From: a virus
Reading direction: 5' to 3' (one strand)
IMG/VR virus record: IMGVR_UViG_3300036766_000125
Coordinates: 1-23,630 of that record
Length of the DNA: 23,630 bases
Shown here in pieces: positions 6,069 through 23,630 of this stretch. Position numbers and translations under genes: made by a program. Under the pieces are notes generated by a model. It had not been told where the DNA came from, ran no database searches, and saw nothing but the letters and a program-made list of their open reading frames with translations. Within the stretch, counting starts at the first letter, position 1, and every line of letters begins with the position of its first letter.

Positions 6069-6072
6069 GATT

Positions 6073-6148: not shown

Positions 6149-6156
6149 ATGTTTGA

Positions 6157-6230: not shown

Positions 6231-6231
6231 G

Positions 6232-6305: not shown

Positions 6306-6310
6306 AGTTT

Positions 6311-6461: not shown

Positions 6462-6468
6462 AGATTGA

Positions 6469-6544
6469 TGCGGGCTAGAACTCTGGTGAGTTTAGCGGTC
6501 TCATAAGCCGCCAAAGGCGGGTCCGATTCCCGTGCCCGCTACCA
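6469..6544 (+). tRNA. tRNA-Met (CAT)
   Basis: Anticodon stem GCGGT/GCCGC with loop CTCATAA, anticodon CAT. Acceptor TGCGGGC/GCCCGCT leaves T1 opposite T72 unpaired. T loop TCCGATT has C55. The D arm is compact (AACTC/GAGTT around TGGT). A73, CCA encoded. Elongator, initiator or modified Ile (CAU) cannot be separated with confidence; it lacks the three G-C pairs of bacterial initiators. Confidence 0.82.
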
Positions 6545-6550
6545 AATTAC

Positions 6551-6625
6551 GGCCTTGTCGTCCACTGGTTAAGATGCCAGATTCTCAATCTGGAGAACCG
6601 AGTTCGATTCTCGGCAGGGCTACCA
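6551..6625 (+). tRNA. tRNA-Glu (CTC)
   Basis: Acceptor GGCCTTG/CAGGGCT, anticodon stem CCAGA/TCTGG with loop TTCTCAA, anticodon CTC reading GAG. T arm CCGAG/CTCGG. A73, CCA encoded. Confidence 0.92.
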
Positions 6626-6626
6626 C

Positions 6627-6703
6627 GGGCATGTAGGGGAGCGGCCGTCCCCGGTGGCTTGTCACGCCACAGACCGCCGGTTCAAATCCGGTCATGCCCG
6701 CCA
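6627..6703 (+). tRNA. tRNA-Asp (GTC)
   Basis: Acceptor GGGCATG/CATGCCC, anticodon stem GTGGC/GCCAC with loop TTGTCAC, anticodon GTC. G73, the Asp discriminator, then CCA. One base after the previous tRNA. Confidence 0.93.
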
Positions 6704-6710
6704 AGATTGT

Positions 6711-6788
6711 ACGGTGGAAGGCGAAGTGGTCGAGCCCTCACTCTTTCAAAGTGAGCATTAGCGGGTTCAAGTCCCGTCCACCGTACCA
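6711..6788 (+). tRNA. tRNA-Glu (TTC)
   Basis: Acceptor ACGGTGG/CCACCGT, anticodon stem TCACT/AGTGA with loop CTTTCAA, anticodon TTC. T arm GCGGG/CCCGT. A73, CCA encoded. Confidence 0.92.
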
Positions 6789-6789
6789 C

Positions 6790-6866
6790 GCGCCCGTGGT
6801 CCAACGGAGCAGGGCGCCGCGCTTCTAACGCGGACGATGCGAGTTCAAGTCTCGCCGGGCGTTCCA
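6790..6866 (+). tRNA. tRNA-Arg (TCT)
   Basis: Acceptor GCGCCCG/CGGGCGT, anticodon stem CCGCG/CGCGG with loop CTTCTAA, anticodon TCT reading AGA. T arm GCGAG/CTCGC. CCA encoded. Fourth Arg tRNA; the inserted HNH gene follows. Confidence 0.92.
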
Positions 6867-6878
6867 CTTTGAGGGAAG

Positions 6879-7424
6879 ATGATGAGCGACACTCTTGTTC
6901 TCGACATGCAGGGCTTTCCAGTCGCGTTCGTATCCTGGCGGCGCGCCGTCAACTTGCAATGGCAGGACCGGGCGGTGGTGGTGTCTGAGGATGCGCAGCG
7001 GATCTTGCGCTCCCCTTCGTTCGAAATGGGATTGCCGCGCGTCATCAAACTGCGGAACCATATCAGCCGGAAGCTGCGGCTAAAGGTTCCCATGACGCGG
7101 CGCAACATCGCGGTGCGTGACAACAGCTCTTGCCAATACTGCGGGGAGCTGCTGGAGACGCCGGAGTACACGGTCGACCATGTGCTGCCGAGAAGCCGTG
7201 GGGGCAAGTCGGTCTGGACGAACCTGGCCCTCGCCTGCGTGCGGTGCAATAAGCGGAAGTCGAATTGCCTTCCGCATGAGGCGGGTCTTACGCTCCGACA
7301 GAAGCCGGTGGAGCCCAATCAATTTGACCCGCGGTTCAATTTCCGCTTGCACATCAAGGTGCTGCGGCCGGAGTGGAAGGACTACGCGCCCTACATCTAC
7401 TGGAACGTCGAATTGGAGAAGTAA
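6879..7424 (+). CDS. HNH endonuclease inserted in the tRNA array
   Basis: A 181-residue HNH nuclease of the stand-alone family whose N-terminus reads like LVLDMQGFPVAFVSWRRAV, a beta-rich lead domain, followed by the catalytic core: CQYC at residues 85-88, DH at 100-101 followed by a SRGGKSVWTNLALAC stretch, then CVRCNKRK. The two CxxC pairs bind structural zinc; His101 and the downstream Asn are the expected catalytic residues. ATG 6879 (a second ATG at 6882) has a GAGGGA ribosome site 6-8 bases upstream. It begins 12 bases after tRNA-Arg and its TAA stop is immediately followed by the first base of tRNA-Phe. It is probably a mobile free-standing homing-type nuclease that settled in the array, though family members with cellular roles exist. 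Confidence 0.9.
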   Translation: MMSDTLVLDMQGFPVAFVSWRRAVNLQWQDRAVVVSEDAQRILRSPSFEMGLPRVIKLRNHISRKLRLKVPMTRRNIAVRDNSSCQYCGELLETPEYTVDHVLPRSRGGKSVWTNLALACVRCNKRKSNCLPHEAGLTLRQKPVEPNQFDPRFNFRLHIKVLRPEWKDYAPYIYWNVELEK

Positions 7425-7500
7425 CCCCGGTGAGCAAGCGCGGTCGTTGCGACGGTCTGAAAAGCCGTAGAGTCCCGTTCGACTCGGGGACCGGGGACCA
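7425..7500 (+). tRNA. tRNA-Phe (GAA)
   Basis: Acceptor CCCCGGT/ACCGGGG, anticodon stem ACGGT/GCCGT with loop CTGAAAA, anticodon GAA. A73, CCA encoded. Its first base follows the TAA of the HNH gene with no gap, so transcript processing must cut precisely at the stop codon. Confidence 0.9.
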
Positions 7501-7501
7501 T

Positions 7502-7575
7502 TCTGGCCTCGTCTAATGGTAGGACGGCTGACTTTGACTCAGCTAATCTTGGTTCGATTCCAGGGGCCAGAACCA
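7502..7575 (+). tRNA. tRNA-Gln (TTG)
   Basis: Acceptor TCTGGCC/GGCCAGA, anticodon stem GCTGA/TCAGC with loop CTTTGAC, anticodon TTG. T arm CTTGG/CCAGG. A73, CCA encoded. Confidence 0.92.
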
Positions 7576-7576
7576 T

Positions 7577-7651
7577 TGCGAGATCGTCTAACTGGTAGGA
7601 CGCCGGGCTCTGAACCCGGTAATGTTGGTTCGACTCCAGCTCTCGCAGCCA
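7577..7651 (+). tRNA. tRNA-Gln (CTG)
   Basis: Acceptor TGCGAGA/TCTCGCA, anticodon stem CCGGG/CCCGG with loop CTCTGAA, anticodon CTG reading CAG. T arm GTTGG/CCAGC. G73, CCA encoded. One base after the previous tRNA. Confidence 0.92.
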
Positions 7652-7668
7652 AATTCACCTTGCTTATT

Positions 7669-7692
7669 CCACAGGCTGGTGTTAGCCTGTGG
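7669..7692 (+). other. 9-bp stem-loop after tRNA-Gln
   Basis: CCACAGGCT (7669-7677) pairs with AGCCTGTGG (7684-7692) around GGTGTT. There is no T run, so it is more likely a processing or stability element than a terminator. The rest of this 185-base spacer has only a 24-codon frame (ATG 7710) of unlikely significance. Confidence 0.5.
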
Positions 7693-7804
7693 CTGACACG
7701 GACAGACGCATGAGAATCTTATCCTCCTCGCTCTTGCTATCATCGCTGAGTTATCTCAGCCGGGATCGAGGGGGTGGCGCGTAAAGTCCAAGGATTTCTC
7801 GACA

Positions 7805-7831
7805 GGCCGCCCCTCAAAAGGCGGCCTTTTT
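7805..7831 (+). terminator. rho-independent terminator within the array
   Basis: Stem GGCCGCC (7805-7811) with GGCGGCC (7820-7826), A-rich loop, then five T. It divides the main array from the last seven tRNAs, yet the next tRNA starts six bases later, so read-through or a promoter inside the spacer is implied. Confidence 0.8.
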
Positions 7832-7836
7832 GTTTT

Positions 7837-7911
7837 GCGCGGCTGGTCAAATGGCAAAGGCGCTCGGCTCAAACCCGAGAGATTCTGTGGGTTCGACTCC
7901 CACGCCGCGCA
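7837..7911 (+). tRNA. tRNA-Leu (CAA), short variable arm, no encoded CCA
   Basis: Acceptor GCGCGGC/GCCGCGC, anticodon stem CTCGG/CCGAG with loop CTCAAAC, anticodon CAA. Variable region only 7 bases (7880-7886), unlike the long arm of bacterial Leu tRNAs. After A73 the DNA reads CGG, so CCA is not encoded; the next tRNA starts two bases after A73. Confidence 0.85.
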
Positions 7912-7912
7912 C

Positions 7913-8002
7913 GGGAGCGTGGCTCAGTGGCGACGGCAGCGGCCTGTAAAGCCGCCACCCCACGGGGAAACACCGCAGGTTCGACTCCTGCCGCTCCCAC
8001 CA
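7913..8002 (+). tRNA. tRNA-Tyr (GTA), class II
   Basis: Acceptor GGGAGCG/CGCTCCC, anticodon stem GCGGC/GCCGC with loop CTGTAAA, anticodon GTA. Long variable arm with a CCCC/GGGG stem, normal for bacterial Tyr. A73, CCA encoded. Confidence 0.92.
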
Positions 8003-8009
8003 AGATTGT

Positions 8010-8088
8010 GCCGGGATGGTCAAATTGGCAAAGGCGCTCCGTTCAGACCGGAGAGATTTTGCGAGTTCGAGTCTCGCTCCCGGCACCA
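8010..8088 (+). tRNA. tRNA-Leu (CAG), short variable arm
   Basis: Acceptor GCCGGGA/TCCCGGC, anticodon stem CTCCG/CGGAG with loop TTCAGAC, anticodon CAG. Variable region 7 bases (8054-8060), class I size. The D arm is Leu-like and nearly identical to that of the CAA tRNA at 7837. A73, CCA encoded. Confidence 0.88.
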
Positions 8089-8096
8089 AAGGTTAG

Positions 8097-8173
8097 GCGC
8101 AGGTGACGCAATCGGCAGACGTGCCAGTTCGAGAGACTGGATTTTGGAGGTTCGAATCCTCTCCTGCGCACCA
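8097..8173 (+). tRNA. tRNA-Leu (GAG), short variable arm, C33
   Basis: Acceptor GCGCAGG/CCTGCGC, anticodon stem CCAGT/ACTGG with loop TCGAGAG, anticodon GAG. Position 33 is C. Variable region only 5 bases. A73, CCA encoded. Confidence 0.85.
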
Positions 8174-8178
8174 AGATC

Positions 8179-8267
8179 GGAGAGCGAGGCAGACGGTAAG
8201 CCAGCGCACTGCTAACGCGCCAACTGCCGAAAGGTAGAACTGGGTTCGACTCCCAGGCTCTCCGCCA
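8179..8267 (+). tRNA. tRNA-Ser (GCT), class II
   Basis: Acceptor GGAGAGC/GCTCTCC, anticodon loop CTGCTAA, anticodon GCT reading AGC/AGT. Long variable arm as expected for Ser. T arm CTGGG/CCCAG. G73, CCA encoded. Confidence 0.92.
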
Positions 8268-8272
8268 TGATT

Positions 8273-8358
8273 GGAGGGCGCTGCTGAATGGCCGGCAACT
8301 GGTCCTGAAAACCAGGGACGGGTGACACCGTGGGGTTCGATTCCTCCGTCCTCCGCCA
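8273..8358 (+). tRNA. tRNA-Ser (TGA), class II, C33
   Basis: Acceptor GGAGGGC/GTCCTCC, anticodon stem CTGGT/ACCAG with loop CCTGAAA, anticodon TGA. Position 33 is C. Long variable arm (CGGTG-type hairpin). G73, CCA encoded. Confidence 0.9.
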
Positions 8359-8363
8359 ACTTT

Positions 8364-8441
8364 GGGAGTGTAGCAGAACTGGCATATGCGGGAGGCTTAA
8401 ACCCTCCGTCCATGTGGGTCCGAATCCCACCACTCCCACCA
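8364..8441 (+). tRNA. tRNA-Leu (TAA), short variable arm, C55
   Basis: Acceptor GGGAGTG/CACTCCC, anticodon stem GGAGG/CCTCC with loop CTTAAAC, anticodon TAA. Variable region 6 bases (8408-8413). T loop TCCGAAT has C55. A73, CCA encoded. Last tRNA of the array. Confidence 0.88.
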
Positions 8442-11858: not shown

Positions 11859-13673
11859 ATGGGCCTCTTTGATAGGCTGCGCGGCAAGACGCTGATTAAC
11901 GAATCTCTGGTCAAGACTCCAAAGAATCTTCCCCCCGGAGCGCAAGTTCTGCAAATCCCCACGGTCTTGAATCTCCCCCAAATTGGGCCCACAGGGGGTT
12001 CTCACGTTGTCAGCGATGTCGTGACGAGCATGTGGTTCTCGGCCTTGCAACCGATCAAGCCGATGGCTCCCACCGGGCAGCGCGTCCGTGGCTTCGAGAT
12101 CCAGCCAGGTGCGAACATTGTCTGGACGCCCAAGACCGAGGTGGAAGGAACGGGCCCAGGCTATGCGATTCTCCGCGAGTTCGCCAACTCGTGGGACTTG
12201 CTGCGCTTGGTCATTGAAACCGTGAAAGATCGTTTGACCACGCCCCAATGGGAATTCCGGCTCATCGAAAAGAAAGGCGAAAAGAAAGGCGATTACAAGA
12301 GGCGGAACGCCGAGGACGTGCGCATCGAGCAGCTCACAAAGTTTTTCAAAGCTCCGGACGCCGAACACTGCTTTGCCGACTGGCTACGCCCCTTGCTCGA
12401 AGACATGCTTGTGATCGATGCCGCCAGCATCTATTTAGAACGCGACTTGAAAGGCCGCGTCGCCAACTTGCGCGTAATTGATGGAGGCACGATCGGTCGG
12501 ATGCTGACTGACCAAGGCTTCACTCCACCACCACCCCAGGTGGCTTATCAGCAGGTTCTCTACGGGCTGCCGGCGCACGATCTGACCACCGACGAACTGG
12601 TCTATGCCATGCGCAACCCGCGGACTAACCGGCGCTATGGCTTCTCGCCCGTCGAGCAGATGATGGTCACGATCGCCATTGGCCTCAGCCGGCAGAAGTT
12701 TACCTTGAACTATTATACCGATGGGAATATGCCCGAGGCGCTCTGCTTCCTGCCCCAGGACGTTCCCATCCAGCGTATCCGCGAAGTGCAAGAGTGGTTT
12801 GACTCGATCCTCGCGGGCGACCTGGCCAAGCGGCGCCGGCTCACCTTCCTGCCTGGCTACGGTTCGGGTAAGGATACGAAGCCGAACATCATCTTCCCTA
12901 AGGAAGTCCTACTCAAAGACTCGATGGATGAATGGCTGTGGCAAGTAGCTTGCTATGCGATGGGCACCACACCCCAAGCTATGCTCCGCATGATGAACCG
13001 CGCGACCGCCCAGCAGTCGGCGGAGTCTTCTGAGGAAGAAGGTCTCGAGCCCAAGAAAATCTGGATTGCGAATACTTTGAACGTCATCATCCAGCAGAAG
13101 ATGAAGTTCGAGGATCTCGAATTTGCTTGGAAGCAGGCGCGGGAAGTCGATATCGTCAAGCAGGCCACGGTGGACAAGATTTATATTTCTTGCGGCGTGC
13201 ACACCATCAATGAAACGAAGGACGCTTTGGGAGAGGACCGGTTCACTTTCCCCGAAGCCGACGAGCCCGGGATCTTGACGCAGAATGGGTTCGTGCCGCT
13301 CACGGCTGGCATCGTGAATCAACCTGGTGCAGCCGGATCGGGCAAGGGACCCGCTGCTCAACACCTGATCAGCAACCTCGAAGATCACCATGCGGCCCAG
13401 GAAGAAAAGCAACAGACACAGGGCGAAGTCGCACATGGCCGCGCGCTCGAGCTGCAAGGGGCCAAAGGTCCGGCCAAAGAAGAAGTTGCGCCGAAGAAGC
13501 CGGCACCCAAGCCGCCATCAAAGCTCAAAGGCAAGGCGTTTGAACTCAAAGCCCCATCCGGGAATGGACATGGTCACTGCGAGAAGCACGAGAAATATGC
13601 TGACGGGTGTTTTGTGTGTGCGCTTGCAGAACTGCATCGCGTGGAAGAACTCTACGAATTGATCGAGACATGA
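11859..13673 (+). CDS. portal protein
   Basis: A 604-residue portal of the large phage-portal superfamily, the dodecameric ring at the head vertex through which DNA passes. Supporting features are the position directly after the terminase, segments such as LVIETVKDRL, DELVYAMRNPRTNRRYGFSPVE, a long stem/wing region and LLKDSMDEWLWQVACYAMG. The core ends near residue 490. A Lys/Pro/Ala-rich linker (about 500-570) then leads to a C-terminal Cys/His knuckle, GHCEKHEKY...CFVC, an addition not typical of portals. Good start at ATG 11859 with GAAGGA upstream. The stop overlaps the next ATG (ATGA). Confidence 0.85.
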   Translation: MGLFDRLRGKTLINESLVKTPKNLPPGAQVLQIPTVLNLPQIGPTGGSHVVSDVVTSMWFSALQPIKPMAPTGQRVRGFEIQPGANIVWTPKTEVEGTGPGYAILREFANSWDLLRLVIETVKDRLTTPQWEFRLIEKKGEKKGDYKRRNAEDVRIEQLTKFFKAPDAEHCFADWLRPLLEDMLVIDAASIYLERDLKGRVANLRVIDGGTIGRMLTDQGFTPPPPQVAYQQVLYGLPAHDLTTDELVYAMRNPRTNRRYGFSPVEQMMVTIAIGLSRQKFTLNYYTDGNMPEALCFLPQDVPIQRIREVQEWFDSILAGDLAKRRRLTFLPGYGSGKDTKPNIIFPKEVLLKDSMDEWLWQVACYAMGTTPQAMLRMMNRATAQQSAESSEEEGLEPKKIWIANTLNVIIQQKMKFEDLEFAWKQAREVDIVKQATVDKIYISCGVHTINETKDALGEDRFTFPEADEPGILTQNGFVPLTAGIVNQPGAAGSGKGPAAQHLISNLEDHHAAQEEKQQTQGEVAHGRALELQGAKGPAKEEVAPKKPAPKPPSKLKGKAFELKAPSGNGHGHCEKHEKYADGCFVCALAELHRVEELYELIET

Positions 13674-15958
13674 TTGCCCCTCCCGAAGTTGTCGCTCAAG
13701 TGCAGGCCGTCAGACGCTCACTCGCTCTCTATCTGAAATCCTCTATTCAAAAAACTCACGACGGCGCGGTTCATGCCTGGGAGTCGCGAGATCGTGGCGG
13801 GAAAGAATCATGGGGTCCGAACGACAAAGAACTGGCCATCCTGAACGGCGTGCCGCTCGAGCCAGCCCTGCCCGACTATGACCAGCTCCAGGCGTCCATT
13901 CCAGAGCCGCCTTTTACGGGGGACGCTGCCGGCGTCATTCTACTCGAGCCAGACGGTCGGGTGTGGACGGTTTCACCCAAGAATGAGTTTGGCGGGTATC
14001 GCACCACGTTCCCCAAAGGCAGGCTCGATCCCGGCGAGACGCCGCAGGAAGCCGCGATCCGTGAGACTTGGGAGGAAACCGGGCTGGTCGGCAAGATCGA
14101 ATCCTTCCTGGGGGATTTCGAGCGCACGACAACCACAACGCGCTACTATGTGGGGTATCGCGTGGCCGGCGCGCCTTGGGCGATGGGCAGCGAAACCGGC
14201 ATTGTCCATCTGCAACCACTCGATGACAAACTGGCTGCCGACCTTCGCAACGTCAAGGGTGAAGTGACTAGCGACCACCATGTTCTCATTGCCTTGAAGA
14301 TGCGGGCGATGGGCAAGACGCACGAAGGCGCATTGCGCGCCTGGGAAAGCCGCAGGCGGAATGCCGAAGCCAAGAAAACCGGCGAGGTCGGACTCAAACC
14401 CGGCGAGGAATGGCGGACGATTTACGGCCGCAAGATCGGCTTCAATCCTTCCGACAAGGTTCAGCGGGCACTCGCGGAACTGCCAGCAACTTACCAGCAA
14501 CTACAACTGCCCGGGCATCACCTGAGTTACAAGAACATCGAGGACATCCGGCACGCAGCGGAGTTCTGGCAGGAATCGCACGATGGTTCGAACGCGCTTT
14601 CCTGGGCCGTGTCCATCTATCGCCAGGGTGGACAGGACGCTCTCGATGCGTGGATTCACGACCCACAAATGACAAGCTACTTTGGCGCCAAGGATGAATG
14701 GGCTAAAGAGCGGGCTGCGCTGAATGTTCCAGGGCTCGTGCAGGCACTCGACCATGCGCCGCTTGAAACCATGACTCCCATTTGGCGCAGCCTGAACGAA
14801 TTTGACATGAAGCGGTTCGGCAGCTTGAAAGAGGGCGACGAATTCCAAATGATCGGTCCCAAAGGCTTCTCGCACGCGGAGGACATGAAGCATTTCAACG
14901 GCTTCAATGTCATGGTCATCGAAGGGCCGGTGCGCGCCGTAAACTTTGAGGGAATGCACGCGCAGTTTCATACCGAAGAAGAAGTGATCACCGCGGGCAA
15001 GTTCAAAATCACCAAGATCGTGGACGTGCCCGAACCGGTCTATAGCAGCGAGCCCAAACTGCACCACTACATCCACGCGCGGTACATTGGCAAGCGGCAG
15101 GCCCGCATGGTGCGCATCTGGTTTGTCCAGCAGGTTGATACCGGCGTGGATCCAAAATTCCCGGACTTGACCCGAGACCTCTGCGCCTCATTCTCGGAGA
15201 GCCTGCGGCCCACGATCGGCAAGACATATTCGATCTACGACTTGCGCCTGGACTACACCCGCCAAGAGCGCGTGGCAGCCAGCGTCGATTTGATGCAGGC
15301 CAGCGATGATCCGGAAGTGAAGGCGGACATCGAAGCCGCCAGCGCCTATTCCGGCTATGTCCAATGGGGCCGCGCTGTCAGCGATGCGTCGGCGGCTTAC
15401 ATTCAGGAGGGCGATTCTGGACTGGAGACGTGGATTTCACAAATTTATGAATCTGCGAATTCGCGGGAGTACGGCCTGGACTTCGAGCCAGAGGAGGTCC
15501 GCCTGGATGGGGAGCCGATCAAGACGTCGGCCGAAGTCTCTGCCCGCGCTGCCAAGCGCCTGGTCGAGCACGTCCGCCACTCGCCGGGCCGCACAGTCGA
15601 TGTGTGGCGTGGGCTCCATGCTTCGAAGCCTATTCCCGAGCTGGATGCGCTGGCTGAGGGTGCGATCGTCAAGATCGATCGGCTGGCGTCCTTTTCTGCG
15701 AAGCAAAAGACGGCCATCCAGTTCGCCGAACGCGGTCACGATCCCGTGAACTACGAATACCTGCTGCATGTCCAGGGCGCGAGCCAGGGAGTGAATCTCG
15801 ATGCCTTGGCCGACCGGCACCAATGCGAATACGTTACCCAAGGCGAATTCAAAGTGGAAAGCGTGGTCAAGGAAGAAGCGCAATTCAAACGGCCCTCGGG
15901 CCTGACCTATCCGGTACAGCGTGCTACGATCACGCTGAGCCAGACCAAGGTGTATTGA
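13670..15958 (+). CDS. Nudix hydrolase fused to two ADP-ribosyltransferase-like domains
   Basis: A 762-residue fusion, ATG overlapping the portal stop. Order: short helix; tag KTHDGAVHAWESRDRGGK (28-45); Nudix hydrolase (about 75-205) with a complete Nudix box at 117-139 (G, x5, E, x7, REtwEEtGl); tag KTHEGALRAWESRRR (216-230); a first ART-like region (about 330-450) with WR at 372-373 and HTEEE at 434-438; a second ART-like region (about 600-745) with WRG (R647), ASFS (S674/S676) and a CEYVTQGEF segment (E720, E726), fitting the R-S-E pattern. ARTs transfer ADP-ribose from NAD to protein, DNA or RNA; Nudix enzymes cut ADP-ribose or NAD-type pyrophosphates. ART domains are common on phage head proteins and may be injected, as with T4 Alt. 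Pairing with Nudix in one chain is unusual. Confidence 0.8.
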   Translation: MIAPPEVVAQVQAVRRSLALYLKSSIQKTHDGAVHAWESRDRGGKESWGPNDKELAILNGVPLEPALPDYDQLQASIPEPPFTGDAAGVILLEPDGRVWTVSPKNEFGGYRTTFPKGRLDPGETPQEAAIRETWEETGLVGKIESFLGDFERTTTTTRYYVGYRVAGAPWAMGSETGIVHLQPLDDKLAADLRNVKGEVTSDHHVLIALKMRAMGKTHEGALRAWESRRRNAEAKKTGEVGLKPGEEWRTIYGRKIGFNPSDKVQRALAELPATYQQLQLPGHHLSYKNIEDIRHAAEFWQESHDGSNALSWAVSIYRQGGQDALDAWIHDPQMTSYFGAKDEWAKERAALNVPGLVQALDHAPLETMTPIWRSLNEFDMKRFGSLKEGDEFQMIGPKGFSHAEDMKHFNGFNVMVIEGPVRAVNFEGMHAQFHTEEEVITAGKFKITKIVDVPEPVYSSEPKLHHYIHARYIGKRQARMVRIWFVQQVDTGVDPKFPDLTRDLCASFSESLRPTIGKTYSIYDLRLDYTRQERVAASVDLMQASDDPEVKADIEAASAYSGYVQWGRAVSDASAAYIQEGDSGLETWISQIYESANSREYGLDFEPEEVRLDGEPIKTSAEVSARAAKRLVEHVRHSPGRTVDVWRGLHASKPIPELDALAEGAIVKIDRLASFSAKQKTAIQFAERGHDPVNYEYLLHVQGASQGVNLDALADRHQCEYVTQGEFKVESVVKEEAQFKRPSGLTYPVQRATITLSQTKVY
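13751..13804 (+). repeat. tag motif copy 1 (before Nudix)
   Basis: Encodes KTHDGAVHAWESRDRGGK. First of six copies of a shared peptide in this region; it stands immediately before the Nudix domain. Confidence 0.85.
14315..14359 (+). repeat. tag motif copy 2 (between Nudix and ART)
   Basis: Encodes KTHEGALRAWESRRR at the junction of the Nudix domain and the first ART-like region. Confidence 0.9.
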
Positions 15959-15969
15959 GGAGCAAACCT

Positions 15970-16380
15970 ATGGGACACAGTGAAGATCACGTCATTCCGG
16001 ATGAGAAATGCAGGCCGGAATACTTCAAAGCGACAGAGGGTGATGCACCCAAGAACGCGGAACTGCGCGGCCCGGACAGCCCATTTCCCGTGGCCGTAGA
16101 ACCCAGGCCGCCAAAGCTTTCAGCCTACGACTTTACAAGTTATACCGGCGACCGCAGTAGCGATGGAGTCGGTATTCAATTTGGGATGGATCAAATCCAA
16201 TGCGCGAAGGTTCTACGGGAGATTGCGGACAAGATCGAACGCCGGGAATATATCTTGCAGAGTGGGCGAGTCATGTCCTCGATGCACCGTGACGATTTCC
16301 CCATGACCATGCTGCGCTTGGTCTTTTACGAAGGACCGCCCCTGGAGAATGTGCCGGCTTCACCTGTGGCAGAAGGGTAA
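15970..16380 (+). CDS. hypothetical protein, 136 residues
   Basis: ATG at 15970 with GAGGAGC ribosome site. The acidic, Pro-rich first half (HVIPDEKCRPEYF, ELRGPDSPFPVAVEPRPP) is followed by an amphipathic helical part (MDQIQCAKVLREIADKIERREY) and a strand-rich end (DFPMTMLRLVFYEG). It stops 3 bases before the next gene. No family recognised; it lacks the shared tag of its neighbours. It may be a chaperone or immunity-type partner of the large enzymes around it, which is only a guess from position. Confidence 0.65.
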   Translation: MGHSEDHVIPDEKCRPEYFKATEGDAPKNAELRGPDSPFPVAVEPRPPKLSAYDFTSYTGDRSSDGVGIQFGMDQIQCAKVLREIADKIERREYILQSGRVMSSMHRDDFPMTMLRLVFYEGPPLENVPASPVAEG

Positions 16381-16383
16381 AGC

Positions 16384-18048
16384 ATGAGCGTTGCAGAGCT
16401 GGTCAAAGGCACGTTCGGGAAAACGCATGAGGGCGCGTTGCTGGCGTGGGAGACGCGCGACCGTGGCGGCAAACCAACGGACGTTTCCACCTGGAAGCGA
16501 GTGGGCCCGCAGCAAGGCTCGAACCCAGGTGGCCTATTCGAAGCTCCAGACGGCACGCGCTACTACGTGAAATTCCCACAGACCAACTCTGAACAGGTCC
16601 GCTCTGAGCAGCTTGCCAACAGCATCTATCACGCCTTGGACGTCCCGGTACCGGGAACTCAGCTCATTACCGGGCACGTCGGCTGGGGTGAGGCCGGCAA
16701 CCTTGGCATTGCCAGCAAGATGCTGGACGCGGAACCCATGACGCGCGAGGAAATCGAAAAGAGCGATGATGTGCGCGCTGGTTTTCTGGCCGACGCTTTC
16801 CTCGCCAATCACGATGTCATGGGCGCCGGCTACGATAACATCCTGCACGGTGCGGATGGGCGCGACTATCGAGTGGACAACGGCGGCTCGATGTTCTACC
16901 GCGCCCAAGGCTCGACCAAGGACTTTGACGCCGACCAGGTCTCGCAAATTGACAGTATGCGGGATCCGGAAATGGCTCGAGAAGCTGGCCGCATCTTCGC
17001 TGGGCTCGATAACGCCGAGCTGCACGCGCAGGCGTTGCGGTTGGTTCACTATCTGCCCGACACGAAGATCAAGAGTTTGGTGCAAGCGGCCGGGCTGCCC
17101 ACGAAATATGCGGCGGCGCTGATTGGCCGGCGCAACGCGATCGCGGACCGCTTCAAGATTCGCAGGCCGACGGAGTACAAGGTTCAGAAAACGCACGAGG
17201 GAGCGATTGCCGCCTGGGAGACGCGACGCCGAGCCGCGGAGGGCCTGACCGAAAAACCGCTGGCTCCAAAGAACGAATGGGGCCATCGTACAGAGTTGGA
17301 ACAACTTAGATTGGAGCGCCAAGTCAAGGAAGCCAGCCAGCTTACGCAAAAGCAATATCTGGCGAGTCAGCATGGCACGAAATATAAGGATTCCCTGGGA
17401 AGGGATGAAACCTGGTCCGGGAAAGATCACGAGATCCGGACTGCTAAATACTGGCATGAAATGGCGGTAAAGTGGGCAATGAATCATGGAATCCATGTGC
17501 CCAAGGCTGTGCTCAAAGACTATTCGTTGGGGAAAACTCACGAAGGCGCGCTGCGCGCCTGGGAGACGCGGCAGCGTGCCAAGCCTAAAGCACCGAAGGC
17601 GGACGCCTCCGAACAAGAGCGGCGCCGGGCGGCCGCGTTCAAGAACTTCAAGCCACAGACTGAGGAAAAGGAACTTATTGCCCACGAAAGTGAACAGCGC
17701 GTGGCCGCAGCCCTCGGTGGGGAAGCCACGACCGACGCGCACCCTATGGACATTTGGTGGCCGTCGACTGCCAATCCCCAGGTCGGGATTGAGGTAAAAA
17801 CTTTGATCGGGGCTGACATTACAAATGTCAGGGTCAATATGAGACCAGCCTGCCGCACTGAGAAAATTGAAGCGTTAGGCAATAAACGCGGTTTTGTTGT
17901 GCTCCTTGACCAGCGTGGACGCACGAGCCTGAGTGATCGAAATTTCACGGAGCACATTTTCATTAAAGAGGGGATGGGTGCTTGGAGACTATCAACCATG
18001 CAGGAGGTGAAATCGTTGAGTGAACTCAAGCGATCACTGCTAAAATAG
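16384..18048 (+). CDS. HipA/PI-kinase-like domain fused to a PD-(D/E)XK nuclease
   Basis: A 554-residue modular protein in which each module follows a copy of the shared tag. Tag 1 at 13-30 precedes a kinase-like domain (about 40-260): VKF with K63, an NHDVMGAGYDN loop (D144, D151, N152) and RVDNGGS (D165), the pattern of HipA / phosphatidylinositol-kinase-like folds. Tag 2 (269-283) precedes an ~95-residue unknown basic helical region. Tag 3 (384-398) precedes a nuclease domain (about 420-540): a SEQRVAAALGGEATTDAHPMD run with D456, then GIEVKT with E470 and K472, the D-ExK core of restriction-type nucleases. Encoded between portal and the Mu F protein, so probably head-associated. The kinase target and nuclease substrate cannot be told. 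Confidence 0.75.
   Translation: MSVAELVKGTFGKTHEGALLAWETRDRGGKPTDVSTWKRVGPQQGSNPGGLFEAPDGTRYYVKFPQTNSEQVRSEQLANSIYHALDVPVPGTQLITGHVGWGEAGNLGIASKMLDAEPMTREEIEKSDDVRAGFLADAFLANHDVMGAGYDNILHGADGRDYRVDNGGSMFYRAQGSTKDFDADQVSQIDSMRDPEMAREAGRIFAGLDNAELHAQALRLVHYLPDTKIKSLVQAAGLPTKYAAALIGRRNAIADRFKIRRPTEYKVQKTHEGAIAAWETRRRAAEGLTEKPLAPKNEWGHRTELEQLRLERQVKEASQLTQKQYLASQHGTKYKDSLGRDETWSGKDHEIRTAKYWHEMAVKWAMNHGIHVPKAVLKDYSLGKTHEGALRAWETRQRAKPKAPKADASEQERRRAAAFKNFKPQTEEKELIAHESEQRVAAALGGEATTDAHPMDIWWPSTANPQVGIEVKTLIGADITNVRVNMRPACRTEKIEALGNKRGFVVLLDQRGRTSLSDRNFTEHIFIKEGMGAWRLSTMQEVKSLSELKRSLLK
16420..16473 (+). repeat. tag motif copy 3 (before kinase)
   Basis: Encodes KTHEGALLAWETRDRGGK near the N-terminus. 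The trailing DRGGK is shared with copy 1, also N-terminal in its protein. Confidence 0.9.
17188..17232 (+). repeat. tag motif copy 4 (after kinase)
   Basis: Encodes KTHEGAIAAWETRRR at the end of the kinase-like domain. Confidence 0.9.
17533..17577 (+). repeat. tag motif copy 5 (before nuclease)
   Basis: Encodes KTHEGALRAWETRQR immediately before the PD-(D/E)XK nuclease domain. Confidence 0.9.
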
Positions 18049-18052
18049 GAGC

Positions 18053-18088
18053 GCCCCAAACAGTCAGCGGATACTGACTGCATGGGGC
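18053..18088 (+). other. strong intergenic stem-loop upstream of HNH gene
   Basis: CAGTCAG (18061-18067) pairs with CTGACTG (18074-18080) around CGGATA, and outside it GCCCC (18053-18057) pairs with GGGGC (18084-18088) across AAA/CAT. No T run follows, so a terminator is unlikely. It may regulate or process the mRNA, or mark the edge of the inserted HNH gene. Confidence 0.6.
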
Positions 18089-18115
18089 TAACCACAACTC
18101 CTAGCAGGAGGAATT

Positions 18116-18646
18116 ATGGCTCCATCCATTTTACACAATCGCTTCTGGTCTAAAGTAAATAAGAATGGCCCTGTTCCTGAATTGCGCCCCGAGCTAGGCC
18201 CGTGCTGGATTTGGAATAGTGCCAAACAGAGCGATGGATACGGAAGTTTCTGGTTTGCTGGACGCGCGGCGCTGGCGCACCGTATAGCGTATGAATGGGA
18301 GAATGGCCCAATCCCGCTTGGTCTTGAGCCAGATCATTTGTGTCGAACCCGCGCATGTGTGCGACCATCGCACATGGAAGTGGTTACGAAACTGGTCAAT
18401 ATGATGCGCGGCAATGGAAAGGGCGTAGAGAATGCAGCCAAAACGCATTGTCCAAAAGGGCACGCTTACACGCCCGAAAACACGATTGTAATAACGAAAC
18501 CGGGCGGGGTTTTCGAGCGACGAGAATGCAAAGTCTGTCGGCGTGCGACTGGTCGCAAGGCGCAACAGCGTTATCGGCAGAACAATCTCGATGCGGTACG
18601 AGAGCGCGACAGAAAGTGGCAAAGAGAAAGGCGGAAGGGAACATGA
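18116..18646 (+). CDS. HNH homing-type endonuclease
   Basis: A 176-residue HNH protein of the HNH_3 type. The core has CWIWNSAKQSDGYG, an AHRIAYEW strand-helix and PDHLCRTRACVRPSHMEVVT (about residues 70-95), the usual catalytic His and structural residues. It continues with CPKGHAYTPENT (about 113) and a second CxxC before a very basic C-terminal helix likely to grip DNA. A full AGGAGG precedes ATG 18116. It interrupts the head gene cluster between the kinase-nuclease and Mu F genes, and its stop overlaps the Mu F ATG (ATGA). It is probably a free-standing mobile nuclease. Confidence 0.88.
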   Translation: MAPSILHNRFWSKVNKNGPVPELRPELGPCWIWNSAKQSDGYGSFWFAGRAALAHRIAYEWENGPIPLGLEPDHLCRTRACVRPSHMEVVTKLVNMMRGNGKGVENAAKTHCPKGHAYTPENTIVITKPGGVFERRECKVCRRATGRKAQQRYRQNNLDAVRERDRKWQRERRKGT

Positions 18647-20922
18647 GTCTCTCCCTTTTTTCAGACGACAGCGAATGGATCGGCAGCGTGGCGTCGACGG
18701 GCGGCTGGCACGACTTATGCGGCGCCGTAGGCGAGGACGATTCCGAATTCGCGGCCTTCTGCAAGCAAGGGTATAGTGACGACGCCCAAAAGTTGCGCTG
18801 GGCGATTGGCCAATTCTTGCTGACCAAGAGCTACGCTGATGGCGCTCACCTTCCTCCGGGTGTGCATGACACCGCCGCGAAACTGATGAAATTGGTGACC
18901 GACCGGGAAGGACTTGTCATTCTCTCGGACAGCGTGATAGTGGAAGAGGACCCGGAACCTGAAACTGAAAAGGTGTCGATCGAGACCGAACTGGTCAAGG
19001 CGCTCTCGGAACTTCTGCACAAGCCCACACTGGCCATCGACTTCGACGCCACTCTGCAAGTGCAGCATCCCGACGATCCCACGGCGCTCACCGAACCCGT
19101 CGACGGTGCGATTGAGGCGCTGCGCCAGCTCGCAGAGGACTTTGATTTAATCATCTTCTCCGCCCGCGATGACTTCGAGCCGATCTGGAAATGGCTGCAA
19201 GATCATCAGGCCACGGCCTACATCACGGACGTGACGAACATCAAGCCCCAGCAGGCGCACGAATTCATCGACGACCGCAACGTGACCTTTACGGGCAAGT
19301 GGACGCCTGAATTTATTGCGGCGGTCCGCGCCTTTCAGCCTTATTGGAAAGCCACCCGCGGCGCGCGGGTGCTGCTGATCAAGTACAGCTACGACTTGGT
19401 GCAATACAATCTGGCACCCGAGGACGCAAAGAAAGTGCTGGCGATTCCGGTTGACGAAGCAGATTGGGCCGAGAAGGGCCGCGAACAGGAACCGCACATC
19501 ACCGTTCTCTTTGGCTTACTTGGAGTGACCGCCGAACAAATCCAGACCGCGATCGAGGATATCCCGACCAAGATCACCGTGGACATCATCGGCCTTCATT
19601 CATTCCCGGCCGGTGAGGATGGAGAACCCCTGGTCTTACTGGTCAAGAGCGACGAACTAGTACGCTTGCGGAACGCCCTGGCCTACACCTTCGAGCACTT
19701 CGATAGTCATGGTGGCGGGTACGTCCCGCACATCACGATCGGCTATCTCAAACCCGGTACCGCCGCGAAGTATGTCTGCCCGATTCCCGATTGGGAGCAG
19801 ATCAATCTCAGTGAGTTGATCCTGAGCCGCAAGGACAACACGACTGCGCCGCTGGTCAAGGCGCGCACGCTCAAAATCGACTCAGCGTATGCTCCGGCCG
19901 AAGTGGTCAAGGCGCGGCATGACCTGGCGGACGTATTCAAAAAGGTCTTTCGCCGGCAGCGCGATAAAGCGAAGGACAAAGCGGGGCGCCTGCTCAAAAC
20001 GCGGCTCGATGTCCACAAGGCGTGGATGGAAGCGGGGCTCATCAAAGTCTATCACTCGGTCGACGAGCTGCCTGAGTACATGCACGACCTCCCCAAGCGC
20101 CAACAGCGGCAATGGATGGCTGTCTGGAATTCCGCTTATGCACGCGCGAAGAAACCGAAGGATGACGGTGGCCTGGGCATGGACACTGCCGAAGCCGAAG
20201 CGTTCGCTTTCCGAAACGCGAATGGCGTGGCTGGGCCCAATGCTTCGAAGGTCTTGTTCCCTGAGCTACTCAAGCAAGAAGAGGACCCGGAAGCGGTGAA
20301 CATCGCGGACGCCATCTATGACGCCCTGCGTGAACTCTTTGATGAAATTCCTGCGGCGGCAGCCAAGCCGCTCGAGCGCGCAGCCCTCGCCGGGGTCGAG
20401 AAAGGAATCGCCGAGGTGGAAGTGGCAGATAGTGGCATGATCTCCGGACTCAATGCCGGGGCCCATACCTGGGCGGACGGCCGAGCCGCCGAATTGGTTG
20501 GCAAACGTGTGACACCCACCGGCGAGCTTATTCAGAATCCAGATGCGAAGTGGGTTGTCTCGGATACTACCCGCGATGAGTTGCGCCGCATTGTGACCTC
20601 GGGCTTTGCCAAAGAAACACCGATGGAGGAAATGGTCAAGCAGATCCAGGAAGCGGGGGCGTTCTCCGATGCCCGGGCGGAAATGATAGCGCGTACCGAA
20701 ATCGCTTTCGCGCAGGTCCAGTCCAATTACAAGGTGTGGAAAGAAACCGGCGTGGTCAAGACGATCACCTGGCATGTGTCCGTGGATCATCCCGAACTCG
20801 ATGAGTGCGATGACAACCAGGGCGTGGTCGTGCCGCTCGGCACGGAGTTCCCTTCCGGAGATTTATTTCCTCCGGCTCATCCGAACTGCTGGTGCGCGAT
20901 TATCGCGGTGGGCTTTGCTTGA
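18643..20922 (+). CDS. HAD phosphatase / 2H phosphoesterase / ChaB / Mu F head morphogenesis fusion
   Basis: A 759-residue fusion, start ATG 18643 with GGAAGGGA upstream, overlapping the HNH stop. Residues 1-115 unknown. HAD-type phosphatase about 125-235: DFDAT at 133-137, FSAR (motif II), IDDR with D210-D211. 2H phosphoesterase about 240-380: two HxT motifs, HIT at 285-287 and at 363-365. ChaB-like domain about 470-540 (LPEYMHDLPKRQQ, WNSAYARA). Phage Mu F / SPP1 gp7 domain at the C-terminus: ARTEIAFAQ (R684), a D/C-rich DECDDN segment and PPAHPNCWC. Mu F proteins are minor capsid proteins at the portal and can be injected. 2H enzymes cleave 2',3'-cyclic phosphates or cyclic oligonucleotides (T4 Acb1 is a 2H enzyme), so RNA-end healing or anti-CBASS action is possible; that is inference. 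Confidence 0.85.
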   Translation: MSLSLFSDDSEWIGSVASTGGWHDLCGAVGEDDSEFAAFCKQGYSDDAQKLRWAIGQFLLTKSYADGAHLPPGVHDTAAKLMKLVTDREGLVILSDSVIVEEDPEPETEKVSIETELVKALSELLHKPTLAIDFDATLQVQHPDDPTALTEPVDGAIEALRQLAEDFDLIIFSARDDFEPIWKWLQDHQATAYITDVTNIKPQQAHEFIDDRNVTFTGKWTPEFIAAVRAFQPYWKATRGARVLLIKYSYDLVQYNLAPEDAKKVLAIPVDEADWAEKGREQEPHITVLFGLLGVTAEQIQTAIEDIPTKITVDIIGLHSFPAGEDGEPLVLLVKSDELVRLRNALAYTFEHFDSHGGGYVPHITIGYLKPGTAAKYVCPIPDWEQINLSELILSRKDNTTAPLVKARTLKIDSAYAPAEVVKARHDLADVFKKVFRRQRDKAKDKAGRLLKTRLDVHKAWMEAGLIKVYHSVDELPEYMHDLPKRQQRQWMAVWNSAYARAKKPKDDGGLGMDTAEAEAFAFRNANGVAGPNASKVLFPELLKQEEDPEAVNIADAIYDALRELFDEIPAAAAKPLERAALAGVEKGIAEVEVADSGMISGLNAGAHTWADGRAAELVGKRVTPTGELIQNPDAKWVVSDTTRDELRRIVTSGFAKETPMEEMVKQIQEAGAFSDARAEMIARTEIAFAQVQSNYKVWKETGVVKTITWHVSVDHPELDECDDNQGVVVPLGTEFPSGDLFPPAHPNCWCAIIAVGFA

Positions 20923-21088
20923 ACGCCTTAATCAACCGTGGATGGACGCAGACTTGAAAGGTCCCCCAAAATAATTCCAGGAGCTTGTCGATTTCGGCGA
21001 TGGTTCCACTTGGCCGAATAAGGCAACTTGACCGACACTTCCGCGCCCTCGTAGCCGAGCGGATCGGAGCGCGTTGGCGTGTGATCAA
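20900..21088 (-). CDS. possible small minus-strand protein
   Basis: A 62-codon frame on the minus strand opening at a TTG that overlaps the stop of the minus-strand zinc-finger gene (TTGA) and ending 22 bases inside the 3' end of the Mu F gene. It is basic at first, then TIAEIDKLLELFWGTF. No family is recognised and coding is uncertain. Confidence 0.2.
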   Translation of the reverse strand: MITRQRAPIRSATRARKCRSSCLIRPSGTIAEIDKLLELFWGTFQVCVHPRLIKAFKQSPPR

Positions 21089-21309
21089 GGACTTACTCCA
21101 TCACACACCGCGTCCACAATCGCCTCCTCGGGTCGCAGTAGCCCACGCACATCACGGCACTCGGCGCAAAGCGTGCCATCGAAAAGCACGGTGCAGTGTT
21201 TCAACTCACCGCAGCCCAAGCATCTTTCGATGGTTGAGCCCGTTGCGCCTCGCCGCTGCCAGTTGCGCGGGGCGGGCATCCGGTCTGTTGAGACGACGTT
21301 TTGTCTCAT
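21085..21309 (-). CDS. small zinc-finger protein, minus strand
   Basis: A 74-residue frame (start ATG at 21309-21307) beginning MRQNVVSTDRMPAPRNW. A four-Cys knuckle, CLGCG...CAEC, spans about residues 30-52, followed by an acidic helical tail (LLRPEEAIVDAVC). Spaced Cys pairs make chance unlikely. No strong ribosome site is visible; a GTG at 21348 or an internal ATG are alternatives. It is the only well-supported gene on the minus strand, lying opposite a + strand gap, so it may be a later insertion (moron-like). Confidence 0.5.
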   Translation of the reverse strand: MRQNVVSTDRMPAPRNWQRRGATGSTIERCLGCGELKHCTVLFDGTLCAECRDVRGLLRPEEAIVDAVCDGVSP

Positions 21310-21402
21310 GAGCGCAGTATGCCATGCAAGGGGCTGGAAAACAAGCACTTACAAATAAAAGTAGCTGTTTGTGGTCATTTTCTTGCCGCTGGCCGTCCGA
21401 CT

Positions 21403-21435
21403 TTTGTACCCTTTTCGCCTCCACAAAGGTACAAA
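21403..21435. promoter_or_regulatory. inverted repeat, possible operator
   Basis: TTTGTACC (21403-21410) and GGTACAAA (21428-21435) form a perfect 8-bp inverted repeat separated by 17 bases. It lies between the minus-strand gene and the + strand protease gene, where a shared operator or RNA hairpin could act. Confidence 0.4.
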
Positions 21436-21511
21436 GGCCCGAAAAAATCTTGACCTTACCCCAAAGATTTTACTTGCACGCTCAAAAATGGGTTTCTACC
21501 TTTCCTGTGGG

Positions 21512-23630
21512 ATGAACAACTTCCAGAAATTCTATCCGCTGGTGAAGGTCGACGAAGCGACCCGGACTGTTTATGGATTAGTTACAGCCGAAAAGCCGGA
21601 CCGCGACGGCGAGATTTGCCACTTCGCTTCGACCGTTCCCTACTACAACGACCTCCGAGATGAATTCAGCAAGGCCACCGATGGCAAGTCCATCGCACCG
21701 CTGCGCGAGATGCACCAGCTCTCGGCGGTGGGTGTGGGCAAGTCCATCGACTTCCGCGAAGCCGAACGCGCGATCTACATGGGCTTCAAGGTCGTGGACG
21801 ATGTGGCGTGGAAGAAAGTGCAGGAAGGTGTTTACACCGGATTTTCGCAGGGCGGCAATTACGTCAAGACGTGGCGCGGTGTGTGGACCAACCCCGACAC
21901 GCAAAAGACGGCAGAGTACACCTGGTTTACGGCAAAGCCCGGCGAAGTCTCTCTGGTCGATTCTCCCTGTCTCAAGGATGCGCGTTTTCAAATCGTGAAG
22001 GCCGATGGCTCGGTGGAAGAAAAGACGTTCAAAGTGGAGGTTGCCGCGATGCCCACCGCTCCGGCCGGCTCAATCGTTCCTCCACCGTATGGCCAGGCCC
22101 CGCAGCAACCTGCCGAACAGAAGTGCGGGAAGTGCGGAAAAGGATTCAAGCCCGCGGCCCAGGAAACAGTTTGTCCTGAGTGCGGGGCGGCCGAGAAGGT
22201 GGCCAAGGCCACGGAACTGTCGCTCGATGACAAGCGCAACTTGGTGAGTGCTGCCTGCCGCGCAAAGTTCAATGCGCCGATGCTTTCGGCTTCTGCCCCC
22301 TGCAATGACATTTGGGTGCGCGAGTTGTATGACGGCTACGCCATCATCGACAGCCAAGGTGCTGATTGGAAGGTTCCCTACACGATTTCCGCTGAGGGCG
22401 AAGTTGCCTTGGGCGAGCCCGAGAAAGTCGTGCAGACCTATGTGCCGGCAGAAAAGGCCAAGCGGTTTTGTCCTGGTTGTGTGGGAGAGCTGAGTGACGG
22501 CGACAAGTGCAGCAAGTGTGATGCGAGTGGCTTTGAAAAGGCCCTGAGCGACAAGATCGATCGGCTGATTCAGAAGGCGACGACCGGCGAACCCATCTGG
22601 TGTCAATGCGGCGCCGGACTCGAACCGGAGGACATCGACCTGGGCAAGTGCCAGGAATGCGGGACCGACATCACCGACCCGATGCACGTGGTCGAGAAGG
22701 CGATGACCAAGACGCATGAAGGTGCAATCGCCGCATGGGAAACTCGCCGCGCCGGTAGTGGTGAAAAGCCTGCGGCAGCGGGCAAGCCAGCGGCTGGCAC
22801 GGAAACCGGCCAAGCGCGCGAGCATCACCTGAAAAACACCTCGCCTGGGCACAACAAGGAATATCACCTGCGACAGACCGTGACGGGAAACAAGTCGGCG
22901 GTGGAAATCTCTTTTGGCCGAATCGGTGGCGGGCTGACTCGCGGCTTCCTGGATGCGGAAGGCAAGATGTCGGGTTCGCGGGTTCTGATGGATCACGCGG
23001 ACGCCAACCGCGTCTATGAAGCACGTCTGAATCAGAAGCTTGGGCGCGGGTACAAACAAACCAAGGTGGAGGCGTCCGGCGACCTCGAAAAGGGCGACAA
23101 GAAAACCAAGACCGTAGGTGGCAAAAGCCTGTCCTCTTCGGCCTTCGCCTATGTCGGGGATCCGGAAGTCACTTCGACCTGGAAGTACCCGATCCACGAC
23201 AAGTCACACGCGCAGAACGCGCTCGCCCGCTGGGGCCAGCACACCGGCATACCGAAAGAGAAAGAAGCGGCGGTGCTCGGTCGCATCCGCGCGGCGGCAA
23301 AGAAATTTGGGATCAAAGTTTCCGAGGAAGCCGAGAAGGTGCTGCGGGCCTATCAGTTCCTGACGGAACCGGTGGAGAAGGCAGCTACCTGGAACGCCCA
23401 GCAACTCAGCGATGTGAACGAAGTATTCGAGGTGCTGAAAGCGGCGGCAATCGAGGACGGCGAATCCCCCGATGATTTGGCTGGCCTGCTCGATAAGGCT
23501 GTCCAGTGTTTCACAGCGTTACTCACCGAAGAAACTCAAGAGCTTCGGGATCAAGCGGCCGCAGTGGCCGAACACACCAAAGGAGAGACGACCATGACTC
23601 CAGACGAATTGCAAAAGGCAGCGGAAGATC
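21512..23630 (+). CDS. XkdF/prohead-protease-like protein with zinc ribbons (partial)
   Basis: The frame stays open to the window end, giving at least 706 residues. The N-terminal ~160 residues match the XkdF/prohead serine-protease pattern: VDEATRTVYGLV, a candidate catalytic His (H68 in LREMHQL), Ser in GFSQGG (S112), and PGEVSLVDSPCL, a typical EvSLV strand. Three Cys-rich knuckles follow (about 205-223, 320-337, 366-387), then the shared tag KTHEGAIAAWETRR (400-413), a basic beta-rich stretch, and a DUF6582-like module (about 555-600, HDKSHAQNALARWGQH). The end (CFTALLTEETQEL) may lead into a scaffold. If it is the maturation protease it would cut the other head proteins. Start ATG 21512; ATG 21488 in frame is possible, and neither has a strong ribosome site. 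Confidence 0.75.
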   Translation, partial: MNNFQKFYPLVKVDEATRTVYGLVTAEKPDRDGEICHFASTVPYYNDLRDEFSKATDGKSIAPLREMHQLSAVGVGKSIDFREAERAIYMGFKVVDDVAWKKVQEGVYTGFSQGGNYVKTWRGVWTNPDTQKTAEYTWFTAKPGEVSLVDSPCLKDARFQIVKADGSVEEKTFKVEVAAMPTAPAGSIVPPPYGQAPQQPAEQKCGKCGKGFKPAAQETVCPECGAAEKVAKATELSLDDKRNLVSAACRAKFNAPMLSASAPCNDIWVRELYDGYAIIDSQGADWKVPYTISAEGEVALGEPEKVVQTYVPAEKAKRFCPGCVGELSDGDKCSKCDASGFEKALSDKIDRLIQKATTGEPIWCQCGAGLEPEDIDLGKCQECGTDITDPMHVVEKAMTKTHEGAIAAWETRRAGSGEKPAAAGKPAAGTETGQAREHHLKNTSPGHNKEYHLRQTVTGNKSAVEISFGRIGGGLTRGFLDAEGKMSGSRVLMDHADANRVYEARLNQKLGRGYKQTKVEASGDLEKGDKKTKTVGGKSLSSSAFAYVGDPEVTSTWKYPIHDKSHAQNALARWGQHTGIPKEKEAAVLGRIRAAAKKFGIKVSEEAEKVLRAYQFLTEPVEKAATWNAQQLSDVNEVFEVLKAAAIEDGESPDDLAGLLDKAVQCFTALLTEETQELRDQAAAVAEHTKGETTMTPDELQKAAED
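22709..22750 (+). repeat. tag motif copy 6 (in protease-like protein)
   Basis: Encodes KTHEGAIAAWETRR after the zinc ribbons of the protease-like protein, the sixth copy and the third protein to carry the peptide. Confidence 0.9.

What the first reader, a model, noticed from the sequence alone, without database searches (positions are those of the whole stretch)
13751..22750. A recurring KTHEGAxxAWETRxR peptide marks module boundaries in three head-region proteins
Six copies are encoded at 13751, 14315, 16420, 17188, 17533 and 22709. Seen directly: the core K-T-H-[ED]-G-A-x2-A-W-E-[ST]-R is nearly invariant while codons vary, and each copy lies between or before folded domains (Nudix, ART, kinase, middle domain, PD-(D/E)XK nuclease, DUF6582-like part). 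Invariance across unrelated neighbours means selection on the peptide itself. Inference: a prohead-protease cleavage site, a capsid-targeting/ejection tag, or a docking helix that lets the phage swap enzymatic cargo. One copy lies in the protease-like protein, which suits a shared processing or recruitment system. Repeated short tags at domain junctions of other phage head proteins are known to me only as different sequences.
Basis: partly seen in the sequence, partly recalled or inferred. Interest (0 to 1): 0.88.

Follow-up and report, generated by a model that had tools for sequence, protein, structure and literature searches.

The report
Repeated tag on phage head-gene cargo
A phage repeats one 15-residue peptide six times in front of mostly unrelated enzyme modules of its head genes; a sister phage lacks both the peptide and three of the module blocks, and related phages have different short peptides at the same places, so it is probably a lineage-specific tag that gets effector modules into the virus particle.

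Summary
Six copies of KTH[ED]GAxxAWE[ST]RxR lie at exactly the stated coordinates in three proteins downstream of the portal. Codons for identical residues differ as often as random draws would (92 against 94.7 expected), so selection acts on the peptide, not on copied DNA. Predicted structures place the copies outside the confidently folded domains.

Comparison gives the main new result. A sister head module (L106/L108: same five genes, portal 65% identical) has no copy. Three motif-led blocks are missing there: copy 2 with an ART domain; copies 4 and 5 around a middle domain; copy 6 with a WGR-like domain. In related phages the same cargo domains follow other short peptides: HPRDxxGxF before the nuclease, HGVLGMKWG before the kinase, VKGYxKxDGTYVKPHxR before Nudix. 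Actinophages carry an unrelated GMKWG tag at the N-terminus of 4-8 consecutive genes beside the portal.

Beyond this phage I found one likely relative (L007, also in a head region). Nothing credible appeared in 84,980 prokaryote genomes, phage or plasmid records.

Best reading: a lineage-specific cargo tag (docking peptide, perhaps also a processing site) for virion effectors, functionally like T4/P1 capsid-targeting sequences but mostly internal and repeated. Virion location and cleavage are untested.

The parts
13751..13795 (+). Motif copy 1, KTHDGAVHAWESRDR, residues 28-42 of the Nudix-ART-ART protein, before Nudix
   Evidence: low-confidence helix end; L106 has a degenerate GYGGVQSWRAQDRR here (my reading of the alignment)
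14315..14359 (+). Motif copy 2, KTHEGALRAWESRRR, residues 216-230, before the first ART domain
   Evidence: motif plus ART block absent from L106/L108
16420..16464 (+). Motif copy 3, KTHEGALLAWETRDR, residues 13-27 of the kinase-nuclease protein, before the kinase
   Evidence: helix 15-26 at low pLDDT; L107 has EHGVLGMKWGVHKAK at the same place
17188..17232 (+). Motif copy 4, KTHEGAIAAWETRRR, residues 269-283, between kinase and middle domain
   Evidence: helix 271-285; inside a block absent from L106
17533..17577 (+). Motif copy 5, KTHEGALRAWETRQR, residues 384-398, between middle domain and nuclease
   Evidence: helix 385-399; L243 has DHPRDEKGEFTAG before the homologous nuclease
22709..22753 (+). 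Motif copy 6, KTHEGAIAAWETRRA, residues 400-414 of the protease-like protein, before a WGR-like domain
   Evidence: inside a block absent from L106
11859..13673 (+). Portal protein
   Evidence: PF04860 6e-11, phrog_2662 9.6e-50
13670..15958 (+). Cargo protein 1: Nudix - ART - ART, carries copies 1 and 2
   Evidence: NUDIX 1.1e-15; Nudix fold
14363..15205 (+). First ART-like domain, following copy 2
   Evidence: homologous to the second ART by BLASTP, E 3.5e-5; conserved R, FS and E positions; no Pfam hit
15206..15955 (+). Second ART-like domain, no motif in front
   Evidence: 57% identical to the L106 counterpart; weak match to phrog_832, RNA polymerase ADP-ribosylase
16384..18048 (+). Cargo protein 2: CtkA/HipA-like kinase - middle domain - PD-(D/E)XK-like nuclease, carries copies 3-5
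   Evidence: kinase family seen in 517 viral loci; best fold match CtkA, E 1.4e-5; nuclease assigned from its DIWW...IEVKTL pattern and conservation in L106 and L243, no database hit
18643..20922 (+). HAD phosphatase-like - 2H phosphoesterase - MuF protein, no motif
21512..23629 (+). Protease-like - zinc ribbons - copy 6 - WGR-like - DUF6582 protein; runs off the record
   Evidence: phrog_9427 head maturation protease 1.9e-6; Peptidase_S78_2 0.033 and WGR 0.057, both below cut-off; DUF6582 1.1e-6

Best explanation
The peptide is a lineage-specific cargo tag. Each copy is a short, probably helical recognition peptide in a flexible linker in front of an effector or nucleic-acid-binding module. 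During prohead assembly a head component (scaffold/protease, portal or capsid; not identified) binds it, so that modules lacking their own structural anchor are carried into the head and delivered with the DNA. A new module can be added as a tag-plus-domain block, and other lineages use unrelated peptides in the same positions. Shown: sequence, positions, selection on the peptide, presence/absence of blocks between sister modules, and substitution by other peptides. Inferred: helix, binding, packaging and delivery.
For: Six copies at synonymous saturation before six different modules. Sister module L106/L108 lacks the motif and the blocks holding copies 2, 4-5 and 6. Position-for-position replacement in relatives: DHPRDEKGEF before the nuclease in L243, EHGVLGMKWGVHK before the kinase in L107, VxGYxRxDGTYVKPH in 13 of 80 kinase loci, before Nudix where inspected. 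Actinophages put one GMKWG tag on 8, 4 and 4 consecutive genes beside the portal; in Teacup the four remainders are unrelated, and the tag crosses at least 13 PHROG families, one annotated virion structural protein. Record fHe-Yen8-01 annotates the homologous kinase-ART and Nudix proteins as particle associated. The only likely outside relative is in a head region. Precedent: T4 and P1 capsid-targeting sequences (PMC9026906, PMC9024508).
Against: No experiment on this phage or peptide. Four of six copies are internal, while known capsid-targeting sequences are N-terminal; one tag per polypeptide should suffice unless it is cut. One copy is in the protease-like protein itself. No partner is known. 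The models of the motif regions are low confidence and the hydrophobic moment is weak (0.04-0.17). No profile similarity to the GMKWG tag.
Confidence: 0.5

Rival explanations
1. The motif is a maturation cleavage site: the head protease cuts the multi-domain proteins at each copy into separate effectors, removing short N-terminal leaders of 27 and 12 residues.
For: Copies lie between domains and just after short leaders; all six contain A-x-E-[ST], like the AXE motif cut in SPN3US and S/A-X-E in phiKZ; a protease-like protein is encoded next door and carries a copy.
Against: The protease is S78-like at best, not the T4/phiKZ class; about 12 conserved residues is long for a cleavage site; no copy between the two ART domains; A-x-E in a 15-mer is not rare.
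Confidence: 0.27
2. The motif is only a spacer or capping helix, or makes copies stick to each other, with no role in packaging.
For: Predicted as an isolated helix in linkers.
Against: Near-invariance of K, T, H, G, A, A, W, E, R at codon saturation is unusual for a spacer; relatives have unrelated sequences there.
Confidence: 0.13
3. The motif is a basic nucleic-acid tether that holds cargo on packaged DNA.
For: Most copies end in R-x-R; some modules act on nucleic acid.
Against: Charge outside the RxR end is mixed; H, G, A, A, W, E are among the most conserved positions.
Confidence: 0.07
4. The copies are remnants of a mobile DNA repeat or recombination site spread recently.
For: They flank blocks that are present in the window and absent in L106.
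Against: DNA identity is only 51-80% and codon differences are at the random level.
Confidence: 0.03

Closest known systems
Capsid-targeting sequences of T4 internal proteins and P1 DarB
   Same: Short peptide on otherwise different head-packaged effectors; T4 sequences are shared between internal proteins and may let phages load varied cargo (PMC9026906)
   Different: Those are N-terminal; here most copies are internal and repeated before each module; unrelated sequence; packaging untested. In P1 no consensus among Dar proteins was found (PMC9024508)
Polyvalent proteins (Iyer et al. 2017, PMC5512222)
   Same: Multi-domain effector proteins, some encoded beside or fused to portal/MuF genes, as here (2H and MuF fused; Nudix, ART and kinase beside the portal)
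   Different: The word 'linker' does not occur in that paper's text; the repeated boundary peptide is the added feature
GMKWG N-terminal tag of actinophage head-region proteins (Qui, Teacup, Eddiemania; seen here)
   Same: One short peptide with conserved H and W on many proteins beside the portal; L107 has it directly before the homologous kinase
   Different: Mostly N-terminal; no profile similarity to this motif; no relevant paper found by the string GMKWG
Prohead protease sites of phiKZ/SPN3US (S/A-X-E)
   Same: A-x-E present in every copy
   Different: Protease class appears to differ; consensus here is far longer

Membership tests
Capsid-targeting sequence | Shared short peptide on several otherwise unrelated head-region proteins | tested here: met
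Capsid-targeting sequence | N-terminal position | tested here: not met
   Copies 1 and 3 start at residues 28 and 13; copies 2, 4, 5, 6 are internal
Capsid-targeting sequence | Needed and sufficient for packaging a reporter | not testable with these tools
   needs fusion experiments
Prohead protease cleavage site (T4/phiKZ type) | (S/A/L/I)-x-E followed by cleavage | tested here: inconclusive
   A-W-E-[ST] in 6/6, but cleavage cannot be tested
Prohead protease cleavage site (T4/phiKZ type) | T4/phiKZ-class protease encoded | tested here: inconclusive
   Neighbouring protease-like protein matches Peptidase_S78_2 weakly (0.033, below cut-off) and a PHROG head maturation protease; the record is a fragment
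Polyvalent phage protein | Two or more effector domains in one polypeptide, encoded with virion genes | tested here: met
GMKWG tag family | Profile similarity of the peptide | tested here: not met
   hhalign probability 0.2%
   Copies 1, 3, 4, 5 at pLDDT about 33-61 between or before confident domains; copy 2 about 64-76 on a helix after Nudix; copy 6 not modelled

The most novel reading that the evidence does not exclude
Tailed phages use a set of mutually interchangeable, unrelated short peptides (this motif, HPRDxxGRF, GMKWG, GDTKxGADGxLVFxNGRWH, VxGYxRxDGTYVKPH and others) as lineage-specific addresses for virion cargo, placed before each effector module so that modules can be exchanged without redesigning the head.
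Probability: 0.35. Interest if true: 0.82.

Novelty: new variant of a known kind. Interest (0 to 1): 0.62.

Why it matters
How phages choose which proteins to put inside the head is known in detail for few phages, and for P1 no shared signal was found among the Dar proteins. A repeated tag that can be read from sequence would let one predict virion-delivered effectors (ART, kinase, Nudix, nuclease domains) in metagenomic phages, and gives a direct test: fuse the tag to a reporter and look in the particle.

Tried and rejected
Wider occurrence of the exact motif: four DNA-pattern scans of 2.9 million viral contigs gave only L007 as credible; the others were a Lar-type zinc ribbon (L008; recognised from memory), or ORFs without the extended motif, many short or wrong-frame. 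In genome contigs 86 matches, none with the extended motif. Phages: one weak hit at E 9; plasmids: none. None of the 79 newly fetched portal-relative loci has it. Ro60 THEGA rejected as a copy. Common descent with GMKWG: no signal. Amphipathic helix: weak moment. A scan of viral contigs with the whole kinase-nuclease protein found no close relative. Literature for the peptide class: nothing specific found. In one search the alignment of protein 1 used a wrong L106 frame and was discarded; the tblastn result and the ORF were used instead.

Full report
Observation. In all six the core is K-T-H-[ED]-G-A-[LIV]-x-A-W-E-[ST]-R. DNA identity between copies ranges from 51% to 80%, and identical residues are written with different codons as often as random draws by usage would give (92 of 157 sites, 94.7 expected). 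The pairs are not independent, but the point stands: the copies are not recent DNA duplicates and the peptide itself is conserved.

Setting. The record is a 23.6 kb viral fragment with terminase, portal, three motif proteins, and a HAD-2H-MuF protein. Cargo protein 1 is Nudix plus two ART-like domains; the ART domains are related to each other (E 3.5e-5). Cargo protein 2 has a kinase whose best fold match is the H. pylori kinase CtkA (weak Pfam match to HipA-like kinase), a middle domain without Pfam matches, and a PD-(D/E)XK-like nuclease (assigned from its sequence pattern; no database hit). The third protein has a protease-like N-terminus (PHROG head maturation protease 1.9e-6; Peptidase_S78_2 only 0.033), zinc ribbons, a WGR-like segment (0.057, below cut-off) and DUF6582.

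Structure. In the model of cargo protein 2 the three copies are separate helices at 15-26, 271-285 and 385-399 with pLDDT about 40-60, between a confident kinase and a fairly confident nuclease. In cargo protein 1 copy 1 is low confidence and copy 2 sits on a helix after Nudix at pLDDT 64-76. The models are built on shallow alignments, and the motif regions are the weak part; they say the motif is outside the domains, not what it does. The hydrophobic moment is weak.

Sister comparison. A scan with the kinase alignment found 517 viral relatives, of which 80 were fetched. Two of them, L106 and L108 (same alignment values throughout), hold the same five head genes in the same order: portal 65% identical, Nudix-ART 44% and 57%, kinase-nuclease 49% and 44%, HAD-MuF 47% and 43%, protease-like/DUF6582 55% and 62%. 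They have no copy of the motif. In three places the alignment breaks around motif-led blocks: copy 2 with the first ART; copies 4 and 5 with the middle domain (L106 has about 36 other residues there); copy 6 with the WGR-like segment. At copy 1 L106 has a degenerate GYGGVQSWRAQDRR, at copy 3 unrelated residues although the start M-x(4)-L-x2-GT-[FL]-GK is shared. L243, a more distant relative, also lacks the WGR block, so for copy 6 gain in the window's lineage is the simpler reading; for the others gain and loss cannot be told apart.

Other peptides in the same places. Directly before the homologous nuclease L243 has DHPRDEKGEFTAG. Directly before the kinase L107 has EHGVLGMKWGVHKAK. Many myophage-like relatives have GDTKxGADGxLVFxxGRWHK upstream of the kinase and VxGYxRxDGTYVKPHxR (13 of 80 loci; before Nudix where inspected). 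L106 has an HPRVPAGTPGGGRF peptide between MuF and an added kinase-like extension (the kinase call is my reading of the sequence). A regex count with reversed-protein controls gives no control match except for the loose HPRD pattern: 17 of 80 kinase loci against 2 in the control, but 5 against 3 in the portal set, where it shows nothing. These patterns were written after seeing examples, so the counts are descriptive.

An independent precedent. In Arthrobacter phages Qui and Teacup and Gordonia phage Eddiemania, 8, 4 and 4 consecutive genes between terminase and portal begin with nearly the same ~20 residues around FLxHYGVxGMKWG. Four of Qui's eight proteins and two of Eddiemania's are related beyond the tag; Teacup's four are not. 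The tag crosses at least 13 PHROG families, one annotated virion structural protein. It has no profile similarity to this motif, so it is an analogue. I found no paper on it.

Virion link. The record of Yersinia phage fHe-Yen8-01 labels the kinase-ART homologue and the Nudix homologue as particle associated; I could not find its paper and do not know how it was established.

Distribution. The motif outside this phage: only L007, SLTHEGAIKAWETSQRAA, in the ORF just after a protein with a weak head-protein match followed by an FAD-dependent reductase-like part. It has ETS where the others have E[ST]R, was found with a pattern designed on the copies, and runs off the contig, so it is likely but not certain.

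Conclusion. What is shown: a conserved, repeated boundary peptide whose blocks differ between sister phages and whose place is taken by other peptides elsewhere. What is inferred: that it addresses cargo to the virion (0.5), possibly through or together with cleavage (0.27). It fails the strict definition of a capsid-targeting sequence on position, so I file it as a variant that may work like one, not as a member.

Noticed in passing
4027-8441: 33 tRNA genes and a permuted (two-piece) tmRNA in this phage fragment (Rfam tmRNA_permuted 73.4 bits, cut-off 47; ARAGORN tag AKQKLAQVVTFAKNLFAPAMEPQLMAA).
   Followed up: partly
184-1536: Ro60/TROVE-like protein (phrog_850 6.6e-47) encoded upstream of the tRNA array; no Y RNA reached an Rfam cut-off.
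   Followed up: partly
L187 9746-16162; L188 10418-13298; L189 5285-7697: Runs of 8, 4 and 4 consecutive actinophage genes by the portal share a GMKWG N-terminal tag on proteins that are partly or wholly unrelated beyond it.
   Followed up: partly
L114, L116, L117, L143, L181: DLLPxxHPxSxK peptide in two ORFs per locus near very large proteins, another repeated short peptide.
   Followed up: no
L007 516-2915: MuF-like protein fused to a thioredoxin-reductase-like FAD domain, with VERGYHGHFFGGGG at the junction.
   Followed up: partly
15823-16380: Small ORF between the two cargo proteins (in-frame segment 15847-16377) without Pfam match.
   Followed up: no
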